A DNA stretch of 64,000 nt from Brucella daejeonensis (lineage in GTDB: Bacteria; Pseudomonadota; Alphaproteobacteria; Rhizobiales; Rhizobiaceae), in assembly GCF_014199265.1 (NCBI RefSeq), contig NZ_JACIJG010000007.1:186001-250000 (forward strand). The letters run 5' to 3'. Made by a program: the position numbers and the translations under genes. Below are positions 53,572 to 63,106 of the stretch, in pieces. The notes under the pieces are model-generated. The model did not search any database. It was not told the origin of the DNA and saw only the letters and a program-made list of their open reading frames with translations. Each line of letters opens with the position of its first letter. Positions within the stretch are counted from its first letter, which is position 1.

Positions 53572-54552
53572 TTGAAAAAACTGGTTTTTGCAGCGCTGTT
53601 CAGCGCCACGGCTTCGTTCGCCCTGATTTCGACTCAGGCCGCGCAGGCAAACGATAAATTCAAGCTCATACTCGACTGGTATGTGAACCCCGATCATGGC
53701 CCGATCATCGTCGCCGACAAGCTCGGCTATTTCAAGGATGCGGGCCTCGATGTCGATATCGTCGCCCCGGCAGATGCTTCCGTGCCGCCGAAGATGGTGG
53801 CCGCCGGACAGGCGGATCTCGCGATCTCCTACCAGCAGCAGGTGCATCTCGACGTTCATGCCGATATTCCGCTGATCCGGGTCGGCACCCTGGTCGATTC
53901 CCCGCTCAACTGCCTGATGACCCGTGACGACGGATCGGTGAAATCCATCGCGGACCTCAAGGGCAGGAAGATCGGCTTCTCGGTCGCGGGCGTCGAGGAG
54001 ACGGTGCTCGGCACCATTCTCAAGAAGCATGGCATCCAGCTCTCGGACGTCGAACTGATCAATGTGAATTTCTCCCTCGCCCCGTCGCTGATGTCGAAGC
54101 AGGTCGATGCGGTGATGGGCGCCTATCGCAATGTCGAACTGAACCAGATGGCGGTTGAAGGCGTCGCCGGCAAATGCTTCAATGTCGAAGAGGAAGGCGT
54201 GCCGGTCTATGACGAGCTTGTCTATGTCGCCAATCCCGGCAAGCTCGACGCTGCCGAAAAAGAGCGGATTTCACGCTTCCTCGCGGCGACCGAAAAAGGC
54301 GCGCAATATATCGTCAATCACCCGGAACAGAGCTTCGACGTGTTTGCGTCCTACAGTTCCGAACTCAAGGACGAACTGTACAAACGCGCCTGGAAAGACA
54401 CGGTCGCCCGCTTCTCGCGCTCGCCCGCGAGCCTCGATTATGGGCGCTGGAGCCGCTACGAGGCCTATCTGAAGGAAAACGGCCTCGTCCCTTCGATCCT
54501 GCCTGTCGAAAAATTCGCCATCGACGTGAACGCGGAAGGAAACAGGCCATGA
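53572..54552 (+). CDS. thiY: Pyrimidine-precursor ABC transporter substrate-binding protein (NMT1/THI5-like)
   Basis: A 326-residue periplasmic protein with a signal peptide (KKLVFAALFSATASFALIS, ending near AQA). The NMT1/THI5-like blocks are LILDWYVNPDHGPIIVADKL, VPPKMVAAGQADLAISYQQQ and GRKIGFSVAGVEETVLG. ThiY of Bacillus binds formylaminopyrimidine, the substrate feeding TenA, and TenA is the next gene here. The TTG at 53572 follows GGAGGAAACA. It overlaps tenA by 4 bases. Confidence 0.9.
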   Translation: MKKLVFAALFSATASFALISTQAAQANDKFKLILDWYVNPDHGPIIVADKLGYFKDAGLDVDIVAPADASVPPKMVAAGQADLAISYQQQVHLDVHADIPLIRVGTLVDSPLNCLMTRDDGSVKSIADLKGRKIGFSVAGVEETVLGTILKKHGIQLSDVELINVNFSLAPSLMSKQVDAVMGAYRNVELNQMAVEGVAGKCFNVEEEGVPVYDELVYVANPGKLDAAEKERISRFLAATEKGAQYIVNHPEQSFDVFASYSSELKDELYKRAWKDTVARFSRSPASLDYGRWSRYEAYLKENGLVPSILPVEKFAIDVNAEGNRP

Positions 54553-55250
54553 CCATGCCACAGCCGCATTATTCTTCCGAACTGTTTACCCGTCTGCGCG
54601 CCGCGACGCCCGATGACTGGAAATCCTACATCGATCACCCGTTCGTGCACGGGCTTGGCGACGGCACTCTGCCGAAATCCGCTTTCCTGCATTATCTCCG
54701 GCAGGATTATGTCTATCTGCATCACTATGCCCGCGCCTTTGCGCTTGGCGTGATAAAGGCGGGCAACCTCAACGAAACACGGCTTTGCGCCGACATCATG
54801 CATCGGCTTGCAGTGACCGAACTGCCGCTGCATGTCGGCATTTGCGGGCGCGAGGGCATCGGCGAAGAGGAGCTTTACAACACGCGCGAGGAGCCGGAAA
54901 ACCTCGCCTATACGCGCTATGTGCTCGATTGCGGGCAGTCCGGCGACTTTCTCGACCTGCTCACCGCCCTCGTGCCCTGCGCGCATGGCTATGGCGAGAT
55001 CGGGCTGAAGCTTGCGGCGACGGCCAAGCCCGGCACGCCCTATCGGGAGTGGATCGACACCTATGCCGGGTCCGGCTATCAGGACATGTGCCACACGGTC
55101 GGCAAGCTGTTCGATCAGGCCGCGAAGGACCGCATCGGCGCGGATTTCGAGAACAGTCCGCGCTGGCCGAGGCTTTGCCGGATTTTTGCAACCGCCAGCA
55201 GGCTTGAAGCCGATTTCTGGGGCATGGGTCTCAAGGGAGCGGAAAGCTAG
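54549..55250 (+). CDS. tenA: Aminopyrimidine aminohydrolase TenA
   Basis: A 233-residue all-helical TenA_C family enzyme that deaminates aminomethyl-HMP so the pyrimidine can be salvaged. DHPFVHGLGDGTLP near residues 29-42, YLRQDYVYLHHYARAFA, and catalytic Cys144 in LVPCAHGYGEIG, with the Glu in ASRLEADFWGMGL near the end, are in place. Following thiY and preceding the permease gene directly, it points to a salvage-with-import unit. Confidence 0.94.
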   Translation: MTMPQPHYSSELFTRLRAATPDDWKSYIDHPFVHGLGDGTLPKSAFLHYLRQDYVYLHHYARAFALGVIKAGNLNETRLCADIMHRLAVTELPLHVGICGREGIGEEELYNTREEPENLAYTRYVLDCGQSGDFLDLLTALVPCAHGYGEIGLKLAATAKPGTPYREWIDTYAGSGYQDMCHTVGKLFDQAAKDRIGADFENSPRWPRLCRIFATASRLEADFWGMGLKGAES

Positions 55251-56021
55251 GTGAACACTCTCGTTCGCTCCCGCAAGAAACGCATCGCCGACGGGTTGCT
55301 GTCGGCGATTGCCGTACTGGGTCTATGGCAGGCGGTGGTGACGGTCTGGCAGATGCCGCGCTTCATCCTGCCCGGTCCGCTCGATGTGGCGCTCTCGCTC
55401 GTCACCAATGCGCGGCTGATTGCCGATAATGCCATCGTGACCGCTGGCGAAGTGCTGGGCGGGCTTTTTCTCGGCTCGGCCATCGGCGTGCTGACCGCCA
55501 TCGGGCTGATGATGTCGCCGCTTGCGCAACGCCTCGTCATGCCGGTGATGGTGTTCAGCCAGGCGATCCCGATCTTCGCGCTCGCCCCGATCCTCACGCT
55601 CTGGCTCGGCTATGGTCCCGCATCGAAGATCGCCGTCACCATTTTGATGATCTTCTTTCCCGTCGTTTCCACCTTTCTGGACGGAATGCAGCGTACCGAT
55701 CAAACCCTGATCGACGCGGCGGAAAATCTCGGCGCCGGGCGGATGCATATTCTCTTCAGCGTGCGCATACCGGCAGCCTTCCCTTCGCTTGCCTCGGGAC
55801 TGAGCCTTGCCAGCGTCTATGCGCCGATTGGCGCCGTGGTCGGCGAATGGGTCGGGGCTTCGAAGGGGCTTGGCTATCTGATGCTGCTTGCCAATGGCCG
55901 CGCCAAGGTGGACCTGATGTTCGCAAGCCTTTTCGTGCTCGCGGCCTTCACCATGCTTCTACATGCGACGGTTTCGTATTTTGCGCGCAAGCTCGCCGCA
56001 TGGCCGCGCAAAACGGCATGA
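55251..56021 (+). CDS. thiX: ABC transporter permease ThiX
   Basis: A 256-residue permease with about six hydrophobic segments and the BPD_transp_1 coupling region (AENLGAGRMHILFSVRIPAA, about 164-183, and EWVGASKGLGYLM). It starts with GTG at 55251, directly after the tenA stop codon. No ATPase gene (ThiZ) follows on this strand; the neighbour is a convergent dehydrogenase. Confidence 0.92.
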   Translation: MNTLVRSRKKRIADGLLSAIAVLGLWQAVVTVWQMPRFILPGPLDVALSLVTNARLIADNAIVTAGEVLGGLFLGSAIGVLTAIGLMMSPLAQRLVMPVMVFSQAIPIFALAPILTLWLGYGPASKIAVTILMIFFPVVSTFLDGMQRTDQTLIDAAENLGAGRMHILFSVRIPAAFPSLASGLSLASVYAPIGAVVGEWVGASKGLGYLMLLANGRAKVDLMFASLFVLAAFTMLLHATVSYFARKLAAWPRKTA

Positions 56022-56024
56022 AAA

Positions 56025-56046
56025 AACCGGCGGTCGCCCGCCGGTT
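56025..56046 (-). terminator. Intrinsic terminator of the dehydrogenase gene
   Basis: A perfect 9-bp stem (AACCGGCGG with CCGCCGGTT, 4-base loop) is followed on the minus strand by six T residues (complement of the A-run at 56021-56026). The convergent thiX stop lies just beside it. It serves the minus strand best. Confidence 0.8.
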
Positions 56047-56067
56047 CTCGCATTCACGCATCTGGGG

Positions 56068-57501
56068 TCAGGCCAGCGTATAGGCCGTCTTGACGGTGGT
56101 GTAGAACTCGGCTGCGTAACGGCCCTGTTCGCGCGGGCCGAAGCTCGAACCCTTGCGTCCGCCGAACGGCACATGGAAATCGACCCCTGCGGTCGGCAGG
56201 TTGACCATGACCATGCCCGCTTCCGAATTGCGCTTGAAGTGGGTAGCGTGTTTCAGGCTCGTCGTGCAGATGCCCGACGACAAGCCGAAGCTCGTATCGT
56301 TGGCCGTGGCAAGCGCTTCCTCGTAATCCTTGACGCGGATGACCGAAGCGACCGGGCCGAAGATTTCCTCGCGGCTGATGCGCATCTGGTTGGTCGCTTC
56401 CGTGAACAGCGCGGGCTGGAGATAGAAGCCCGGCGTTTCGCGGTTGAGGCGTTCGCCGCCAAAGGCAAGCTTGGCGCCTTCCTTGCGGCCGATTTCGATA
56501 TAGTCCATGTCCTGCTGGAGCTGGCTTTCGTCCACGACCGGGCCGATATGCGTGCCCTGCTTCAGGGCATTGTCGACCGTCACGCTCTTCAGCTTTTCGA
56601 TGGCGGCGGCGACGAACTTGTCGTGGATGCCCTCGGTCACGATGACGCGCGAGGAAGCCGTGCAGCGCTGGCCGGTTGAGAAGAAGGACGAATTGACGAC
56701 CGATTCCACGGCGACATTGAGATCCGCATCATCGAGGACCACGACCGGGTTCTTGCCGCCCATTTCAAGCTGGAAGCGGCGATTATGCTCGATGGAGGCC
56801 GTCGCGACGCGCTTGCCGGTGCCCGTCGAGCCGGTGAAGGTGACGGCGTTGACGTCGGCGCTGTCGAGGATGGTCTGACCGACCACGGAACCCTTGCCCA
56901 TGACGAGATTGAGAACGCCCTTCGGCAGACCGCAGCGATGCAGGATGTCGACAATCGCCCAGGAGCAGCCCGGTACCAGATCGGCCGGCTTGAAGACGAC
57001 GGTGTTGCCGTAGCAAAGCGCGGGCGCGATCTTCCATGCCGGGATGGCGATCGGGAAATTCCACGGCGTGATGATGCCGACGACGCCGACAGGCTCACGC
57101 GTGACTTCGACGCCGATGCCCGGACGCGCGGACGGCAGAACCTCACCCGCAAGGCGAAGGCACTCGCCCGCGAAGAAATCGAAAATCTGGCTGGCGCGGA
57201 TGGTTTCGCCGATGCCCTCGGCAAGCGTCTTGCCTTCCTCGCGCGACAGGAGGCGGCCAAGTTCGTCCTTGCGCGCCAGAATCTCGTCGGCGGTTTTGCG
57301 CAGGATCGCATGGCGCTCCAGAATACCGGACCGCGACCAGGCCGGGAACGCCGCCTTGGCGGCAGCAATCGCAGCCCTGGTGTCGTCGGCGGTCGCCCGC
57401 GCATAGGTGCCCACGACATCATTGGTGTCCGACGGATTGATGTTGGCGATCCCGTCGCCGCCTACCCATTCGCCCGCAATCAGATTTTGATGGATGGTCA
57501 T
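56068..57501 (-). CDS. Aldehyde dehydrogenase, probable 2-ketoglutarate semialdehyde dehydrogenase
   Basis: A 477-residue NAD(P)+ aldehyde dehydrogenase. PWNFPIAIPAWKIAPALCYG, FTGSTGTGKRV, the glutamate of LEMGGKNPVVVLDDAD and the nucleophile in STGQRCTASSR are the usual catalytic set. Its closest layout is the ketoglutarate-semialdehyde type of the pentose, hexuronate or hydroxyproline routes; the substrate is inferred from that similarity alone. The ATG ending at 57501 follows GGGAGAGATC. It is convergent with thiX. Confidence 0.85.
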   Translation of the reverse strand: MTIHQNLIAGEWVGGDGIANINPSDTNDVVGTYARATADDTRAAIAAAKAAFPAWSRSGILERHAILRKTADEILARKDELGRLLSREEGKTLAEGIGETIRASQIFDFFAGECLRLAGEVLPSARPGIGVEVTREPVGVVGIITPWNFPIAIPAWKIAPALCYGNTVVFKPADLVPGCSWAIVDILHRCGLPKGVLNLVMGKGSVVGQTILDSADVNAVTFTGSTGTGKRVATASIEHNRRFQLEMGGKNPVVVLDDADLNVAVESVVNSSFFSTGQRCTASSRVIVTEGIHDKFVAAAIEKLKSVTVDNALKQGTHIGPVVDESQLQQDMDYIEIGRKEGAKLAFGGERLNRETPGFYLQPALFTEATNQMRISREEIFGPVASVIRVKDYEEALATANDTSFGLSSGICTTSLKHATHFKRNSEAGMVMVNLPTAGVDFHVPFGGRKGSSFGPREQGRYAAEFYTTVKTAYTLA

Positions 57502-57785
57502 GATCTCTCCCTGTGCATCGCACGGCCTGATATATCTCGCCAAGACCCTTCACCCATGAGCGGCGGAATTGCAAGACTGTAGCGTCGTTGTAACGAAAAA
57601 AGTGAAATACACGCCGTTCTTTCACGATGAATGATTGCATATCGGCGTTTTCTTCTACCTGAAGTCCAGGCTTGCAAATTTGCCACAGTCAAACAATCAC
57701 GCGGAAAATAGCGATTTTCCGTCTTGGCAAAAATCAATGCTCATTTATTGTGCAAACATCTGCAACACTGGCAAGGAGGTATGAG

Positions 57786-57848
57786 ATGCGTGTCTATTAC
57801 CCAACCCCAATGGTGCCCAGTGTTCGCGCGGGCGCCGCAAATTTCTAG
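57786..57848 (+). CDS. Candidate 20-codon leader peptide
   Basis: A short frame reads MRVYYPTPMVPSVRAGAANF and stops at TAG 57846-57848. AAGGAGG at 57773-57779 gives near-perfect ribosome complementarity with 6 bases to the ATG. An ATG at 57781 in a second frame (about 30 codons) is too close to that site. Tandem hairpins follow at 57864-57896. The Tyr-Tyr-Pro and Pro-rich run might slow ribosomes. It lies 153 bases before the ABC exporter start. Whether it is translated is not known, and no family is recognised. Confidence 0.5.
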   Translation: MRVYYPTPMVPSVRAGAANF

Positions 57849-57863
57849 GTTCGCGGCCCGCAA

Positions 57864-57896
57864 TTCAGGCTAAGGCCTGAACGCCCGTTTCGGGCG
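57864..57896 (+). terminator. Tandem hairpins after the leader ORF
   Basis: TTCAGGC/GCCTGAA (57864-57870 with 57875-57881, 4-base loop) is followed immediately by CGCCCG/CGGGCG (57882-57887 with 57891-57896, 3-base loop) and then CATTTTC. The second resembles an intrinsic terminator upstream of the exporter gene. The two are contiguous, so they could also stack as one structure. Confidence 0.55.
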
Positions 57897-58001
57897 CATT
57901 TTCAAAATCATCGCTTATCGTGGCCCTCTTCGGCGGGCCGATAGTCCTGTTTTCTCTCTTGAAGGGCCAGCACCGTCTTCGCGCGGGCTGGTGGTATCAA
58001 T

Positions 58002-59804
58002 ATGACTCGGTTTCGCATCGATTTCCGGGGACCGGCGTTTCGCAACGTCCTCGGCTACACTTTCAGTCATTGGCGAAGTCAGCCTCTGCGGCTGGCGCTG
58101 ATGATAATCGGCATGCTGCTTGCAACGGCCGCAGATGTTCTCACCCCGCTTTATTCCGGGCGTCTGGTCGACGCGCTTTCGCTTGGCAGCGACAGCGCGT
58201 GGAACGCCGCGATCAGCGCGCTTGTCGTTCTGCTTGCGCTGGGCGCTTTGGCGCTGATCACGCGTCAGCTGACCTTCTATGTCATCACGGATTTCACGCT
58301 GAAGATCATGAGCGACATGGCGGCAAGCTCGTTCCGCAGGCTACAGCGGTTTTCAACCGACTGGCACGCAAACGCCTTCGCCGGATCGACGGTGCGCAAG
58401 GTGTCGCGCGCCATGTGGGCGCTCGACCTGCTCAACGACACGCTGATCATCGCCCTGCTTCCGTCGTTGCTCATGCTGATGGGTTCGGTTGCCCTGCTTT
58501 CGTGGTACTGGCCGGTCATGGGCCTGATGGTCGCGATCGGCTCGGCGCTTTTCATCGCCTGCACCGCCGCTATTTCGCTCGGCTTCGTCGCGCCTGCCGC
58601 AACGCTCGCCAATAGCTGGGACACGCGCATGGGCGGCGCGCTCGCCGACGCCATTTCATGCAATGCCGTCGTCAAGGCTTTCGGCGCCGAAGCCCGCGAA
58701 GACGTGCGCCTTGCGAAAGTCGTCACCAAATGGCGCAGCCGGACACGCCGTACCTGGCTGATCGGCACGCTGAACGGCTTCATTCAGGGCGCGAACCTTC
58801 TGGTGATGCGCGGTGTCGTCATCGTCTTTGCGCTCTATCTGTGGAGCCAGGGCAAGGCAACGGCCGGTGACATCACCTTCGTCCTGACCGCCTTCTTCAT
58901 GTTGCAGGGCTATCTGCGCGATGTGGGTATGCATATCCGCAACCTGCAACGCTCGGTCAACGACATGGAGGAACTGGTCGATATAGAGGCACAGCCCTAC
59001 GGCATTGCCGACAGGCCGCGCGCGCCTGCGATCAGGATCGGAAATGGCGAGATCACCTTCGATCACGTCACCTTCCATTACGGCAATCACGAAGCCGCGC
59101 TCTATCGCGACTTTTCAGTCAGGATCGAAGCCGGAGAGCGTGTCGGTCTGGTCGGTCATTCGGGTTCGGGCAAGACAACATTCGTCAAGCTGATCCAGCG
59201 GCTCTATGACGTCAACGACGGCGCGATCCACATCGACGGGCAGAACATAGCCGAGGTCACGCAGGCATCGCTCCGGTCGCAGATTGCCATCGTGCAGCAG
59301 GAGCCGATCCTGTTTCACCGCACGCTGGACGAGAACATCGCCTATGCCCGCCCCGGCGCGACACAGGCCGAGATCGAGGAAGCGGCACGGCTTGCAAGCG
59401 CGCACGACTTCATCAGCCGCCTGCCGAAGGGCTATGCAACGCTCGTCGGCGAACGCGGCGTGAAGCTTTCGGGCGGCGAGCGCCAGCGCGTGGCGATTGC
59501 CCGTGCGTTTCTGGCCGATGCGCCGGTCCTCATTCTGGACGAGGCAACGTCGAGCCTCGATTCGGAATCGGAGGTGCTGATCCAGCAGGCAATGGAGCGC
59601 CTGATGGTCGGCCGCACGACGCTCGTCATCGCGCACCGGCTTTCGACGGTTCGCGCGCTCGATCGGCTGCTGGTCTTCGACAAGGGCAAAATCCTTGAAG
59701 AAGGCGACCACGATGCGCTCATCCGCAAGCCGGACGGCATTTATCGCCGTCTGTTCGAGCGGCAGGCGCTGGAACTGACCAAGGGGCTGGAGGATATAAT
59801 TTAG
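58002..59804 (+). CDS. ABC exporter, fused membrane and ATPase domains
   Basis: A 600-residue half-transporter. Residues about 20-330 form the six-helix membrane domain (first helix about 31-49), and the C-terminal ATPase has Walker A GHSGSGKTTF (about 386-395), signature LSGGERQRVAIARAF, Walker B VLILDEATSSLD and the H-loop VIAHRLST. It acts as a homodimer or with a partner to export lipids, peptides or drugs; the substrate cannot be told. The gene is preceded by the leader ORF and hairpins and followed by the convergent LacI gene. Confidence 0.92.
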   Translation: MTRFRIDFRGPAFRNVLGYTFSHWRSQPLRLALMIIGMLLATAADVLTPLYSGRLVDALSLGSDSAWNAAISALVVLLALGALALITRQLTFYVITDFTLKIMSDMAASSFRRLQRFSTDWHANAFAGSTVRKVSRAMWALDLLNDTLIIALLPSLLMLMGSVALLSWYWPVMGLMVAIGSALFIACTAAISLGFVAPAATLANSWDTRMGGALADAISCNAVVKAFGAEAREDVRLAKVVTKWRSRTRRTWLIGTLNGFIQGANLLVMRGVVIVFALYLWSQGKATAGDITFVLTAFFMLQGYLRDVGMHIRNLQRSVNDMEELVDIEAQPYGIADRPRAPAIRIGNGEITFDHVTFHYGNHEAALYRDFSVRIEAGERVGLVGHSGSGKTTFVKLIQRLYDVNDGAIHIDGQNIAEVTQASLRSQIAIVQQEPILFHRTLDENIAYARPGATQAEIEEAARLASAHDFISRLPKGYATLVGERGVKLSGGERQRVAIARAFLADAPVLILDEATSSLDSESEVLIQQAMERLMVGRTTLVIAHRLSTVRALDRLLVFDKGKILEEGDHDALIRKPDGIYRRLFERQALELTKGLEDII

Positions 59805-59810
59805 CCCTGG

Positions 59811-60833
59811 TCAAGCTGGCGGTTTGCCGGCGGACTGGCGGACGATGAGTTTGTAATCGATCTGGCGGGACGGAGACGCCTCGCCGGTTTCGATATGGCG
59901 CAAAAGCATGTCCGCCGCACCGCGCGTCATCTCGAAGATCGGCTGGCGCACGGTGGTAATCTGCGGCGAGATCATACGAGCGATGGCGCTGTCGTCGAAG
60001 CCCACCACGGTGAGGTCGCCCGGAATGGAAAGGCCGCGATCATGCGCGATCTGCATGACCGCAGCCGCCATATCGTCATTGGATGCGAAAATTGCCGTCG
60101 GCCTGTTTTCCAGCGCCAGCAGTTTTTGCCCGGCGGCAAGGCCGCTGGCGAAACTGAAACCGCCCTGCACTTCATAATCCGGGTTGCGCGCAATGCCTGC
60201 CTTTTGCAGAGCATGGCGATAACCGGCAAGGCGCAATTCCGCCGAACGGTGAGTCGGATCGCCAATGACTATGGCGATTTTCCTGTGACCAAGCTTCAGA
60301 AGATAGTTCACAAGCTCTATCGCCGCCGCCTCGTCATCGATGGAGACGCTATCGGTCGGCAGCACGCTGATATCGCCCGCCACGCGGGCAAAAGGCATGG
60401 CCGAGGCGGTCAGTTCGCGCAGGATTTCGGGATCGTCCGACATGGGCGGCGTTACGATAATGCCATCGAGACCGGAGGCATGGGCCGTTTCAATCAGGGC
60501 GCCGCGAATATCATTGCGGTTTTCAACCGGGAAGATCAGCAGACGATATCGCGTATCGCGCAGGCGGTCGAGCGCCCCCATCTGTAGTTCCGTGACATAG
60601 CTGGCGCTCGGATTCTCGAAGAACAGCCCGATCAGGTGCGAGCGCCGCTCCACCAGATTGCGCGCCGCCGCATTGGGCCGATAGCGCAGTTCGGCGCCTG
60701 CCTGCCTGACCTTTTCCCGAATGGCTTCGCGCACATTCGGCTCGTCATTATAGACGCGCGAAACGGTTTTTATCGACACGCCCGCAAGGCGCGCCACATC
60801 ATGTATCGTCGCTCTTTTGCCCGTTGCGGCCAT
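59811..60833 (-). CDS. LacI-family transcriptional regulator
   Basis: A 340-residue LacI repressor. The helix-turn-helix ATIHDVARLAGVSIKTVSRV (about 8-27) and hinge PNAAARNLVERRSHLIGL are followed by a periplasmic-binding-like sensor domain (about 65-330). It lies last on the minus strand after DUF779 (73 bases away) and convergent with the ABC exporter. Effector and target are not readable, and a carbohydrate route is likely. Confidence 0.9.
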   Translation of the reverse strand: MAATGKRATIHDVARLAGVSIKTVSRVYNDEPNVREAIREKVRQAGAELRYRPNAAARNLVERRSHLIGLFFENPSASYVTELQMGALDRLRDTRYRLLIFPVENRNDIRGALIETAHASGLDGIIVTPPMSDDPEILRELTASAMPFARVAGDISVLPTDSVSIDDEAAAIELVNYLLKLGHRKIAIVIGDPTHRSAELRLAGYRHALQKAGIARNPDYEVQGGFSFASGLAAGQKLLALENRPTAIFASNDDMAAAVMQIAHDRGLSIPGDLTVVGFDDSAIARMISPQITTVRQPIFEMTRGAADMLLRHIETGEASPSRQIDYKLIVRQSAGKPPA

Positions 60834-60905
60834 TGCCCGTCATGATCCTCCTCAAAATATCTGTCTTCGTAACCCGTTGGCCGGGAAACGAAAAGGACAA
60901 ACATT

Positions 60906-61262
60906 TCAAGGGATGGAACATATCCTGGATCGGGTGAGGAAACGCACCTCGCGCCCGTTATCGAGCGAGAACATGCCGCCGCGCCCCGGAACGACATCGA
61001 TGATGAGTTCGGTATGCTTCCAGGCTTCATATTGCGGGCCGCTGATATAGACCGGCGCACCGCCGATTTCACCCAGTTTCACGTCGGTGTCGCCGACGAT
61101 GAATTCGCCCTGTGGATAGCACATGGGAGAAGACCCATCGCAACAGCCGCCCGACTGGTGGAACATGATCGGCCCGTATTCGGCCTGCAATTCGCGGATG
61201 AGATCGAGAGCGGCGGGCGTGGCGCTGACCTGTCCCATGCCATCGTTACGATCCTGCTGCAT
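60906..61262 (-). CDS. DUF779 family protein
   Basis: A 118-residue protein. FHQSGGCCDGSSPMCYP (with four cysteines) and VYISGPQYEAWKHTELIIDVVPGRGG are the DUF779 hallmarks. Members are often beside alcohol- or aldehyde-dehydrogenase genes, and here one lies 169 bases upstream on the same strand. Function is unknown; the cysteine-rich start may bind a metal. The ATG used gives eight extra residues over an inner methionine (MGQVSAT). Confidence 0.85.
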   Translation of the reverse strand: MQQDRNDGMGQVSATPAALDLIRELQAEYGPIMFHQSGGCCDGSSPMCYPQGEFIVGDTDVKLGEIGGAPVYISGPQYEAWKHTELIIDVVPGRGGMFSLDNGREVRFLTRSRICSIP

Positions 61263-61395
61263 TTCCTCCTCCTCTTATCAAGGAAGCCACGCGGTTGCCC
61301 GGGCAGACACGCCCGGGCCCCTTGGGAGGGTAAACCGAAATCGCTTTTCCCGCACTTTTTTCACAAGCGCGGAGTTCGCCAGTTGGCGTAGGGGG

Positions 61396-61425
61396 TAAAT
61401 TCCGGCTCTGATGAGCCGGAATTTA
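61396..61425 (-). terminator. Perfect 13-bp hairpin after the aldehyde dehydrogenase gene
   Basis: TAAATTCCGGCTC (61396-61408) and GAGCCGGAATTTA (61413-61425) pair perfectly over a 4-base loop. It lies just after the stop codon of the aldehyde dehydrogenase on the minus strand, before DUF779. There is no T-run, so DUF779 may still be read through. Confidence 0.6.
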
Positions 61426-61431
61426 AGTTCT

Positions 61432-62949
61432 TTAAAAGAATCCGAGCTTCTTCGGGCTATAACTCACCAGCATGTTCTTGGTGTTCTGGTAGTGATCGAG
61501 CATCTTCAGGTGGTTTTCGCGCCCGATACCGGACTGCTTGTAGCCGCCGAAGGCCGCATGGGCCGGATAGGCGTGGTAGCAGTTGGTCCACACACGACCG
61601 GCCTGAATGGCGCGGCCGAAGCGATAGGCGCGTGTGCCGTCGCGGGTCCAGATACCGGCGCCCAGACCGTAAAGCGTGTCATTGGCGATCGACAGCGCTT
61701 CGGCATCGTCCTTGAAGGTCGCGACCGACACGACCGGGCCGAAGATTTCCTCCTGGAAAACGCGCATCTTGTTATGGCCCTTGAACACGGTTGGCTTGAC
61801 GTAATAGCCGCCCGCCAGATCGCCCGGCAGCATGTTGCGCTCGCCGCCTGTCAGGACTTCCGCGCCTTCCTGACGTCCGATGTCGAAATAGCTCAGGATC
61901 TTTTCAAGCTGCTCGCTGGACGCCTGCGCACCGATCATCGTGGCCGGGTCGAGCGGGTCGCCCTGCACGATGGCCTCCACGCGTTTCAGGGCCTTTTCCA
62001 TGAATTCGTCATAGATGGATTCCTGCACAAGGGCGCGGCTCGGACAGGTGCAGACCTCGCCCTGATTGAGCGCGAACATCACGAAGCCTTCAATGGCCTT
62101 GTCGAGAAAATCGTCGTCCTCGGCAGCCACGTCCTTGAAGAAGATGTTGGGCGATTTGCCGCCCAGTTCCAGCGTGACCGGAATGAGGTTCTGGCTGGCA
62201 TATTGCATGATCAGGCGCCCGGTCGTCGTCTCGCCGGTAAAGGCGATCTTGGCGATGCGCGGGCTCGATGCCAGCGGCTTGCCCGCTTCCAGACCGAAAC
62301 CGTTGACGATATTGAGCACGCCCGCAGGCAGAAGATCGGCGATCAGTTCGGCCAGAACAAGGATCGAGGCCGGGGTCTGTTCGGCGGGCTTCAGCACCAC
62401 GCAATTGCCTGCTGCCAGCGCCGGGGCGAGCTTCCACGTCGCCATCAGAAGCGGGAAGTTCCACGGGATGATCTGGCCCACGACACCGAGCGGTTCGTGG
62501 AAATGATAGGCGACCGTATCGTGGTCAAGTTCGGAAATGCCGCCCTCCTGCGCGCGGATCACGCCCGCGAAATAACGGAAGTGATCGACCGCCAGCGGCA
62601 GGTCGGCAGCGGTGGTTTCGCGGATCGGCTTGCCGTTGTCCCAGGTTTCAGCCGCCGCGAGAGCAGGCAGGTTTTCCTCAATCCGGTCGGCAATGCGATT
62701 GAGGATGAGCGCGCGTTCAGCCGCGCTCGTCTTGCCCCAGGCATCCTTGGCGGCATGCGCTGCGTCGAGAGCCGCTTCCACATCGGCGGCCTCCGAACGC
62801 GCCACTTCGCAGAGCACCTGACCGTTGACCGGCGAGATGTTGTCGAAATAGCGGCCCGACTTTGGCTCGACCCACTTGCCCCCGATGAAATTTCCATAGC
62901 GTTTGGCAAAAGCCGGTTTCACCGTCCGGCTGAATTCAACCTTGTTCAT
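61432..62949 (-). CDS. Aldehyde dehydrogenase (ExaC/AcoD-type)
   Basis: A 505-residue NAD+ aldehyde dehydrogenase. [20 protein letters not shown] at the N-terminus, [20 protein letters not shown], the catalytic cysteine in [11 protein letters not shown] and the glutamate in [12 protein letters not shown], and the C-terminal [14 protein letters not shown] are those of the acetaldehyde and aldehyde-oxidising ExaC/AcoD branch. The ATG ending at 62949 follows GGGAGGAAGTC and removes 43 upstream codons. It is likely controlled by the AcoR-like gene next to it; a dyad lies at 63107-63124. Confidence 0.94.
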
Positions 62950-62962
62950 GACTTCCTCCCGA

Positions 62963-63012
62963 AACAGCGCGTCCCGAAACGTGCAAAACGGTTTTCGGGC
63001 AAGATGCGCGTT
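62963..63012. repeat. RIME-like palindrome, family C copy 2
   Basis: CAGCGCGTCCCGAAACGTGC and CGGTTTTCGGGCAAGATGCG form an imperfect palindrome with the TCCCGAAA/TTTTCGGG core shared with 25175-25216. It lies in the leader of the aldehyde dehydrogenase transcript. Confidence 0.55.
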
Positions 63013-63106
63013 ATGATAAAAGAGCCGCTCCTCCGGCGCTTCGGTCTTCAGGATGTCGCCGCGAGGGCAAAGTGTCACCTGCCCTTCATGCGCTCACACC
63101 GCCATC

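What the first reader, a model, noticed from the sequence alone, without database searches (positions are those of the whole stretch)
57730..58001. Leader ORF with strong ribosome site and tandem hairpins before an ABC exporter
A 20-codon frame follows AAGGAGG at ideal spacing and is followed by two contiguous hairpins, the second ending in CATTTTC like a terminator, 105 bases before the exporter ATG. The sequence shows this directly. The peptide has a Tyr-Tyr-Pro and proline-rich run that could stall ribosomes. Inference: a translation-dependent attenuator, or a small RNA with an ORF, tuning export in response to a drug, amino acid or translation stress. I know no named leader with this peptide.
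Basis: partly seen in the sequence, partly recalled or inferred. Interest (0 to 1): 0.72.

Follow-up and report, generated by a model that had tools for sequence, protein, structure and literature searches.

The report
Conserved leader ORF before ABC exporter
A tiny, apparently translated gene in the RNA leader ahead of a bacterial pump gene keeps its place across many alpha- and beta-proteobacteria although its peptide differs from genus to genus, which suggests a switch that lets the cell's protein-making machinery tune the pump.

Summary
The 20-codon ORF (57786-57848) behind AAGGAGG is under coding selection in relatives (pN/pS 0.35 and 0.48 in frame, 1.03-1.81 in other frames). An SD-led short ORF lies 150-300 nt upstream of the orthologous exporter in 77 of 80 named loci (41 of them Mesorhizobium; 11 named genera, Burkholderiales included), against 6 of 1271 control windows. 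Peptides differ wholly between most genera. Tyr-Tyr-Pro is kept in 10 of 31 close relatives, but a PxPxVP run is kept in that clade, so a clade-specific stall stays possible. New: the exporter's SD-like site and AUG are bridged by a hairpin ending 7-14 nt before AUG in 125 of 131 distinct sequences (30% of shuffles), with compensatory changes. Best reading: a cis-acting leader in which translation of the short ORF tunes exporter expression, working like bmrB-bmrCD. That coupling is inferred; folding with ribosome masks did not show it. No Rfam match.

The parts
57724..57751 (+). Predicted promoter TTGGCA-16-TATTGT
   Evidence: Scan (9 of 12; 3 promoter-like sites in the region, 0.4 expected). 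CTTGGC and TGCTCATTTATTGTGCA nearly invariant in 29 loci; CTTGGCG..TATAA at the same place in Mesorhizobium- and Sinorhizobium-type loci. Start site not measured.
57764..57824 (+). Helix 1:2, AACACTGGCA (57764-57773) with TGCCCAGTGTT (57814-57824), enclosing the leader SD and start codon
   Evidence: 99.4% of cells paired in 31 relatives, 8 of 10 pairs invariant, one with one-sided change, no both-sided change
57773..57779 (+). Shine-Dalgarno of the leader ORF, AAGGAGG
   Evidence: AAGAGG or AGGAGG in relatives
57786..57848 (+). Leader ORF, 20 codons, MRVYYPTPMVPSVRAGAANF
   Evidence: layout in 77 of 80 named loci
57812..57872 (+). Alternative helices 2:3 (57812-57822 with 57827-57836) and 4:5 (57854-57858 with 57868-57872), which exclude helices 1:2, 3:4 and part of 5:6
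   Evidence: 98.3% of cells paired but no excess co-variation (57 of 500 shuffles as high)
57828..57861 (+). Helix 3:4, GCGGGC (57828-57833) with GCCCGC (57856-57861), spanning the stop codon
   Evidence: 97.8% of cells paired, only one-sided changes
57864..57881 (+).
   Evidence: 97.8% of cells paired; C-G to G-C at one pair in 3 sequences
57882..57903 (+).
   Evidence: 85.5% of cells paired, 2 of 6 pairs with both-sided changes; tail not U-rich in relatives
57922..57960 (+). Hairpin GGCCC/GGGCC with tail GATAGTCCTGTTTTCTCTCTT; terminator candidate
   Evidence: In relatives GCAGCC..GGCTGC TTGTTTTGTCTT: 2 of 6 pairs with both-sided changes, 87.9% of cells paired. Scan picked a different overlapping stem (57932-57951; 2 sites found, 0.9 expected). 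Against: strength hardly above shuffles over all loci.
57961..57992 (+). Exporter ribosome site: GAAGGG (57961-57966) followed by bridging hairpin 57966-57976/57983-57992; the last G of GAAGGG may pair
   Evidence: fold; 125 of 131 distinct sequences; co-variation in other clades
58002..59804 (+). ABC exporter, 600 aa half-transporter (membrane domain plus ATPase)
   Evidence: none of the 25 NCBIfam models shown reaches its cut-off; best solved relatives: P-glycoprotein/ABCB family

Best explanation
The region is a conserved cis-regulatory leader of the exporter mRNA. A promoter near 57724-57751 starts an RNA whose first feature is a short ORF with a strong SD. Shown by comparison: the ORF is kept as a translated frame, it is tied to this exporter, the RNA around it folds into conserved stems, and the exporter's own ribosome site is an SD followed by a hairpin that brings SD and AUG together. 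Inferred: ribosomes on the short ORF decide which of the overlapping leader helices form, and this sets how much exporter is made, by letting RNA polymerase pass the 57922-57960 hairpin or by changing access to the exporter ribosome site. Because the peptide is exchanged between genera while the ORF stays, the sensed variable is most likely ribosome traffic itself (translation inhibition or starvation), as in bmrB-bmrCD, rather than one amino acid.
For: Short SD-led ORF at -300..-150 in 77 of 80 named loci against 6 of 1271 flank windows, 1.7% of shuffles and 3 of 80 on the opposite strand; 73 of 77 family loci with SD>=4; 27 of 28 further loci with looser criteria. Same genus: 29 of 35 genomes have the leader by DNA; of the 6 without, 4 have no exporter closer than 33-39% identity and 2 carry the exporter (88-90%) with a diverged leader ORF. 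pN/pS 0.35 (20-codon class), 0.48 (19-codon class), 0.61 (Mesorhizobium type) in frame, 1.03-1.81 in other frames. Stem co-variation. Alternative helices 98.3% paired. Bridging hairpin. bmrB precedent: PMC4191407, abstract and one results section read.
Against: No expression, ribosome-profiling or start-site data. Folding with ribosome masks: the terminator-like hairpin (0.70-0.76) and the exporter-RBS hairpin (0.65-0.73) hardly move with ribosome position in 31 sequences. In 28 Mesorhizobium-type leaders (of 82 loci given to the script; the rest failed its motif filter or were duplicates) mean terminator pairing was 0.17-0.31 without a clear pattern. Alternative helices show no excess co-variation. 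Terminator hairpin: energy scan better than shuffles on average (-9.4 against -6.1) but only 15 of 64 loci had at most 1 of 12 shuffles as good; second scan 20.5 against 20.0; no co-variation in Mesorhizobium. Leader-SD sequestration weak (0.17 against 0.26 unpaired; 27% of 146 at the 10% level). The proposed pairing of a mid-leader element with the exporter site has no both-sided change.
Confidence: 0.5

Rival explanations
1. Mainly a terminated small RNA or small mRNA with its own role (encoded peptide or base-pairing RNA), with read-through to the exporter as by-product, in the way rnTrpL/peTrpL has trans roles.
For: Leader has its own promoter-like pair and a hairpin with U/C-rich tail before the exporter; rnTrpL precedent in S. 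meliloti (passages of PMC10117765).
Against: Peptide is not kept between genera; one copy per genome by DNA search and beside this exporter; terminator signal weak in general.
Confidence: 0.15
2. Peptide-specific stalling in the Brucella-Ochrobactrum-Pseudochrobactrum clade: the PxPxVP nascent peptide or a drug-peptide pair arrests the ribosome.
For: P-(F/T)-P-x-V-P is kept in the 31 aligned peptides and in L099; in-frame selection.
Against: YYP in only 10 of 31; most other genera with the same layout have no such motif.
Confidence: 0.12
3. Rho-dependent or mRNA-stability control: translation of the short ORF shields a Rho-loading or RNase site; hairpins are spacers.
For: Positional conservation with free peptide sequence; weak intrinsic-terminator signal.
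Against: Conserved co-varying stems are not needed for it; no Rho site tested.
Confidence: 0.15
4. The short ORF is a passive by-product; only the bridging hairpin at the exporter ribosome site matters.
For: Bridging hairpin is the best supported RNA feature; by inspection it persists in L148 and L182, which lack an ORF that meets the criteria.
Against: 77 of 80 against 6 of 1271 for the ORF and in-frame selection.
Confidence: 0.08

Closest known systems
bmrB leader of bmrCD (Bacillus subtilis)
   Same: Translated short ORF ahead of an ABC exporter, with alternative stem-loops; translation of the leader needed for induction (PMC4191407, abstract and one results section).
   Different: bmrB is 53-54 codons with the terminator inside its coding region and serves a heterodimeric exporter; here 10-31 codons, hairpins mostly downstream, a single half-transporter, a bridging hairpin at the exporter start, and no known inducer.
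trpL/rnTrpL of Sinorhizobium meliloti
   Same: Short leader ORF in a structured 5' UTR of the same bacterial order (passages of PMC10117765).
   Different: No run of regulatory codons (a tryptophan run for trpL is recalled); SD-led, not leaderless; transporter instead of biosynthesis.
Phage T4 genes 38 and 25 ribosome sites
   Same: A hairpin between SD and AUG shortens the effective spacing (one passage of PMC3014915).
   Different: Here conserved with compensatory changes across alpha- and beta-proteobacterial chromosomes and plasmids and combined with an upstream ORF; effect on translation not measured.
mgtL/corL proline-codon leaders (recalled, no call)
   Same: Proline-containing leader peptide ahead of a transporter.
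   Different: Proline codons absent from most genera with this layout.
ilvB and fthC uORF motifs (PMC11109978, passages)
   Same: uORF plus hairpins found by comparison.
   Different: Other genes and phyla; in the main text 'Brucella', 'Rhizobi', 'Sinorhizobium' and 'Burkholderia' do not occur (supplements not seen).

Membership tests
Ribosome-mediated attenuation of an ABC exporter (bmrB type) | Leader ORF is translated | tested here: inconclusive
   In-frame purifying selection and SD argue for translation; no ribosome data
Ribosome-mediated attenuation of an ABC exporter (bmrB type) | Mutually exclusive RNA structures overlapping the ORF | tested here: inconclusive
   Both sets about 93-98% paired; co-variation in excess for one set only
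Ribosome-mediated attenuation of an ABC exporter (bmrB type) | Intrinsic terminator whose formation depends on ribosome position | tested here: inconclusive
   Terminator-like hairpin co-varies in the Brucella-type set but not in Mesorhizobium, is weak in general, and no dependence was seen in folding
Ribosome-mediated attenuation of an ABC exporter (bmrB type) | Induction by translation inhibitors that needs leader translation | not testable with these tools
   Needs reporter experiments
Amino-acid biosynthetic leader (trpL type) | Run of codons for the regulated amino acid | tested here: not met
   No common codon run across the peptides
Known Rfam RNA family | Match above the gathering score | tested here: not met
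   window 54000-62000, two sub-threshold matches, neither in the leader; 20 relative loci, 0 matches
SD-hairpin-AUG ribosome site (T4 gene 38/25 type) | Stable, conserved hairpin between SD and AUG leaving a short gap | tested here: met
   125 of 131 distinct sequences, 91 of them with an 8 or 9 nt gap; an SD-like tetramer within 7 nt 5' of the stem in 110 of 125; both-sided changes
SD-hairpin-AUG ribosome site (T4 gene 38/25 type) | Hairpin raises translation | not testable with these tools
   Needs reporter experiments

The most novel reading that the evidence does not exclude
A leader class common to alpha- and beta-proteobacteria in which the short ORF is a pure ribosome counter: its peptide is free to change, and ribosome occupancy refolds the leader so that the exporter's split ribosome site (SD, hairpin, AUG) is assembled or broken, a translational switch acting on a bridging hairpin instead of on a hidden SD.
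Probability: 0.15. Interest if true: 0.78.

Novelty: new variant of a known kind. Interest (0 to 1): 0.58.

Why it matters
Leader ORFs that control exporters are known from a few cases, mostly Gram-positive (recalled). This one is present in Sinorhizobium meliloti 1021, where start-site maps and ribosome profiling have been published, so it can be tested at once. It separates the position of a leader ORF, which is conserved, from its peptide, which is not, and so gives a natural experiment on whether such ORFs sense the peptide or only ribosome traffic. The bridging hairpin gives a chromosomal, compensatory-evolution case of a ribosome-site design otherwise cited here from phage T4.

Tried and rejected
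Tyr-Tyr-Pro arrest as the general sensor: weakened. Anti-terminator linked to ribosome position: looked for by masked folding, not seen. Base pairing of a mid-leader element with the exporter ribosome site in Mesorhizobium (CCGGTC with GAYCGG): 96.1% of cells paired but 0 both-sided changes and 52-78 of 500 shuffles as high, so not supported. Closing helix CCGC/GCGG of the terminator-like hairpin in Mesorhizobium: no co-variation. Sequestration of the leader SD: weak. In-frame N-terminal extension of the exporter instead of a bridging hairpin: rejected by inspection, because 2-nt length changes in L025 and L029 break the frame. First alignment of mixed strands and first peptide listing, off by one base, were discarded and redone. 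Rows dropped: L184 (insertion) left out of alignment A7, so 51 of 52 distinct sequences were used; L088 and L106 had no usable ATG and were left out; alignment A2 uses 28 loci of the window's genus and 3 of a sister genus (L034-L036). Literature: ten searches of the open PMC set; none listed a paper that I could recognise from its title or the passages seen as describing this leader. The locus tag searched was recalled, not taken from a call.

Full report
What is there. The exporter begins at 58002 and encodes a 600-residue half-transporter of the P-glycoprotein/ABCB type; none of the 25 NCBIfam models shown reaches its curated cut-off. The window lies in a genome of 4.64 Mb. The closest named exporter relatives (90-94% identity) are Brucella, Ochrobactrum and Pseudochrobactrum species.

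Conservation near home. A DNA search found the leader in 29 of 35 same-genus genomes and in none of 25 other genomes. All 29 peptides read MR-x-(x)-Y/H/D/Q/L-type starts followed by P-(F/T)-P-x-V-P and sit ahead of the same exporter (L003 first appeared to lack it, but its start was found). Of the six genomes without a DNA match, four have nothing closer to the exporter than 33-39% identity; the other two carry it at 88-90% identity and have a diverged leader ORF of the same kind. In 31 aligned sequences (28 of the window's genus, 3 of a sister genus) the ORF is 20 codons in 17 and 19 in 14, separated by a gap of exactly one codon. Nei-Gojobori counts give pN/pS of 0.35 and 0.48 in frame for the two classes against 1.16, 1.81, 1.60 and 1.03 in the shifted frames; for the Mesorhizobium type 0.61 against 1.14 and 1.12. 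RNA stems overlap the frame, so part of this may be RNA constraint.

Conservation far from home. Of those 80 named loci (41 Mesorhizobium, 11 Paraburkholderia, 6 Brucella, 5 Achromobacter, 4 Aminobacter, 3 Chelativorans, 3 Burkholderia, 2 Ochrobactrum, one each of Pseudochrobactrum, Sinorhizobium and Phyllobacterium, and 2 unnamed metagenome genomes), 77 have an ATG ORF of 10-31 codons with an SD match of at least 5 bases, starting 150-300 nt before the exporter. The same rule is met by 6 of 1271 other 150-nt windows of the same loci, by 1.7% of dinucleotide shuffles and by 3 of 80 opposite strands. The three misses are L148, L165 (which has a TTG-start candidate) and L182. The 80 are not independent. 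In the unnamed family set 73 of 77 qualify with SD >= 4, and 27 of 28 further loci have a candidate under looser rules. The peptides fall into genus-wise types that share almost nothing (MAGFDIVMRGREA, MPEYDMSSRGSNRGH, MPAFGSSSLVGSGLGFPRR, MAAFSMSPRGGVRS, MFAVHIALPRMVPRSPSRP, MIHPMPNAVPRVSPRRH).

RNA structure. On alignment A2, six named stems have 93.0% of cells paired (91.3% in shuffles, 0 of 500 as high), seven pairs with both-sided changes (4.6 in shuffles, 20 of 500 as high) and 31 such cells (11.3, 0 of 500), and far less pairing when slid by 1-3 columns. A second set of helices that excludes parts of the first is 98.3% paired but shows no excess co-variation. Together they form a chain (1:2, 3:4, 5:6 against 2:3, 4:5) of the kind found in attenuators. 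When ribosome footprints are masked in silico, the chain shifts (2:3 rises to about 0.6 with an initiating ribosome), but the terminator-like hairpin stays at 0.70-0.76 and the exporter-RBS hairpin at 0.65-0.73, so no output of the switch is demonstrated. In 28 Mesorhizobium-type leaders the corresponding test was also without pattern.

Terminator question. A later hairpin, GGCCC/GGGCC in the window and GCAGCC/GGCTGC followed by TTGTTTTGTCTT in relatives, co-varies in A2 (two pairs). Over all clades its strength is little above shuffles, although 52 of 130 best stems end 50-59 nt before the exporter AUG, and it does not co-vary in Mesorhizobium. A functional intrinsic terminator is therefore possible, not shown.

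The exporter ribosome site. Ahead of the exporter AUG a purine-rich SD-like core (AAAGGA, GAGG, GGAG, GGGA, TGGAA) is followed at once by a hairpin and then by some 8-9 nt and the AUG. Among 131 distinct sequences the best stem ends 7-14 nt before the AUG in 125, against 30% of shuffles; an SD-like tetramer lies within 7 nt of the stem in 110 of those 125. The fold energy of the 50-nt region alone is only modestly below shuffles (median z -1.15, 32% below -1.5). Both-sided changes: 3 cells against 0.6 in shuffles (12 sequences; the number of pairs with such changes is not unusual, 257 of 500), 4 against 1.4 (9 sequences) and 20 against 8.1 with 3 pairs against 1.1 (51 sequences). A passage in a T4 review describes the same design for genes 38 and 25, where the hairpin shortens the SD-AUG distance and raises translation (PMC3014915).

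Interpretation. The ORF's position, SD and frame are under selection while its residues are exchanged, so what is selected in most lineages is probably that ribosomes load and travel there, not what they make. With an exporter downstream, the best-tested precedent is bmrB-bmrCD, where leader translation is needed for induction by lincomycin (PMC4191407, abstract and one results section). I propose the same logic here and rate it 0.5; the sensing step and the output step are inferred. The proline run kept in the Brucella-type clade leaves room for an added peptide effect there.

Known or new. Rfam has no match in the window region or in 20 relatives. In the annotated records looked at, the leader is not annotated (Pseudochrobactrum; S. 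meliloti RCAM1115), but that gene table is incomplete by its own description and the 1021 record carries no features. Ten literature searches showed no description of it that I recognised. The S. meliloti small-protein paper was seen only in passages, its main text does not contain the peptide, and its supplements were not readable. The S. meliloti start-site paper was searched for five terms with no occurrence.

Noticed in passing
window 57671-57687: CTTGCAAATTTGCCACA lies upstream of the promoter; TTGCAAA-TTG-CACA is largely kept in relatives and could be a regulator site or a second -35 region (one search lists TTGCCA-18-GAAAAT there).
   Followed up: no
L221 (S. meliloti RCAM1115) and L220 (S. 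meliloti 1021 pSymB): The exporter stands between galE and queC/queD/queE in RCAM1115, with a leader ORF M(K/Q)AFSSPYGADPRS at -215 in both strains.
   Followed up: partly
L088 and L096: Second, more distant exporter copies (66-68% identity) in two genomes that also have a closer copy lack the SD-led short ORF by the rule used.
   Followed up: no
L148 1150-1500 and L182 1150-1500: Two loci without a qualifying leader ORF still show, by inspection, an SD-hairpin-AUG arrangement at the exporter; in L182 a tRNA-like sequence lies upstream.
   Followed up: no
L156, L158, L160, L162-L186 (Achromobacter, Paraburkholderia, Burkholderia loci): Exporter orthologues at 70-72% identity in Betaproteobacteria with the same leader layout; transfer or ancient inheritance was not tested.
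   Followed up: no
window 59811-60833 (-) and 61432-63078 (-): A LacI-type regulator and an aldehyde dehydrogenase lie downstream of the exporter on the other strand, and another aldehyde dehydrogenase (56068-57543, -) is divergent upstream (names from reading the translations).
   Followed up: no
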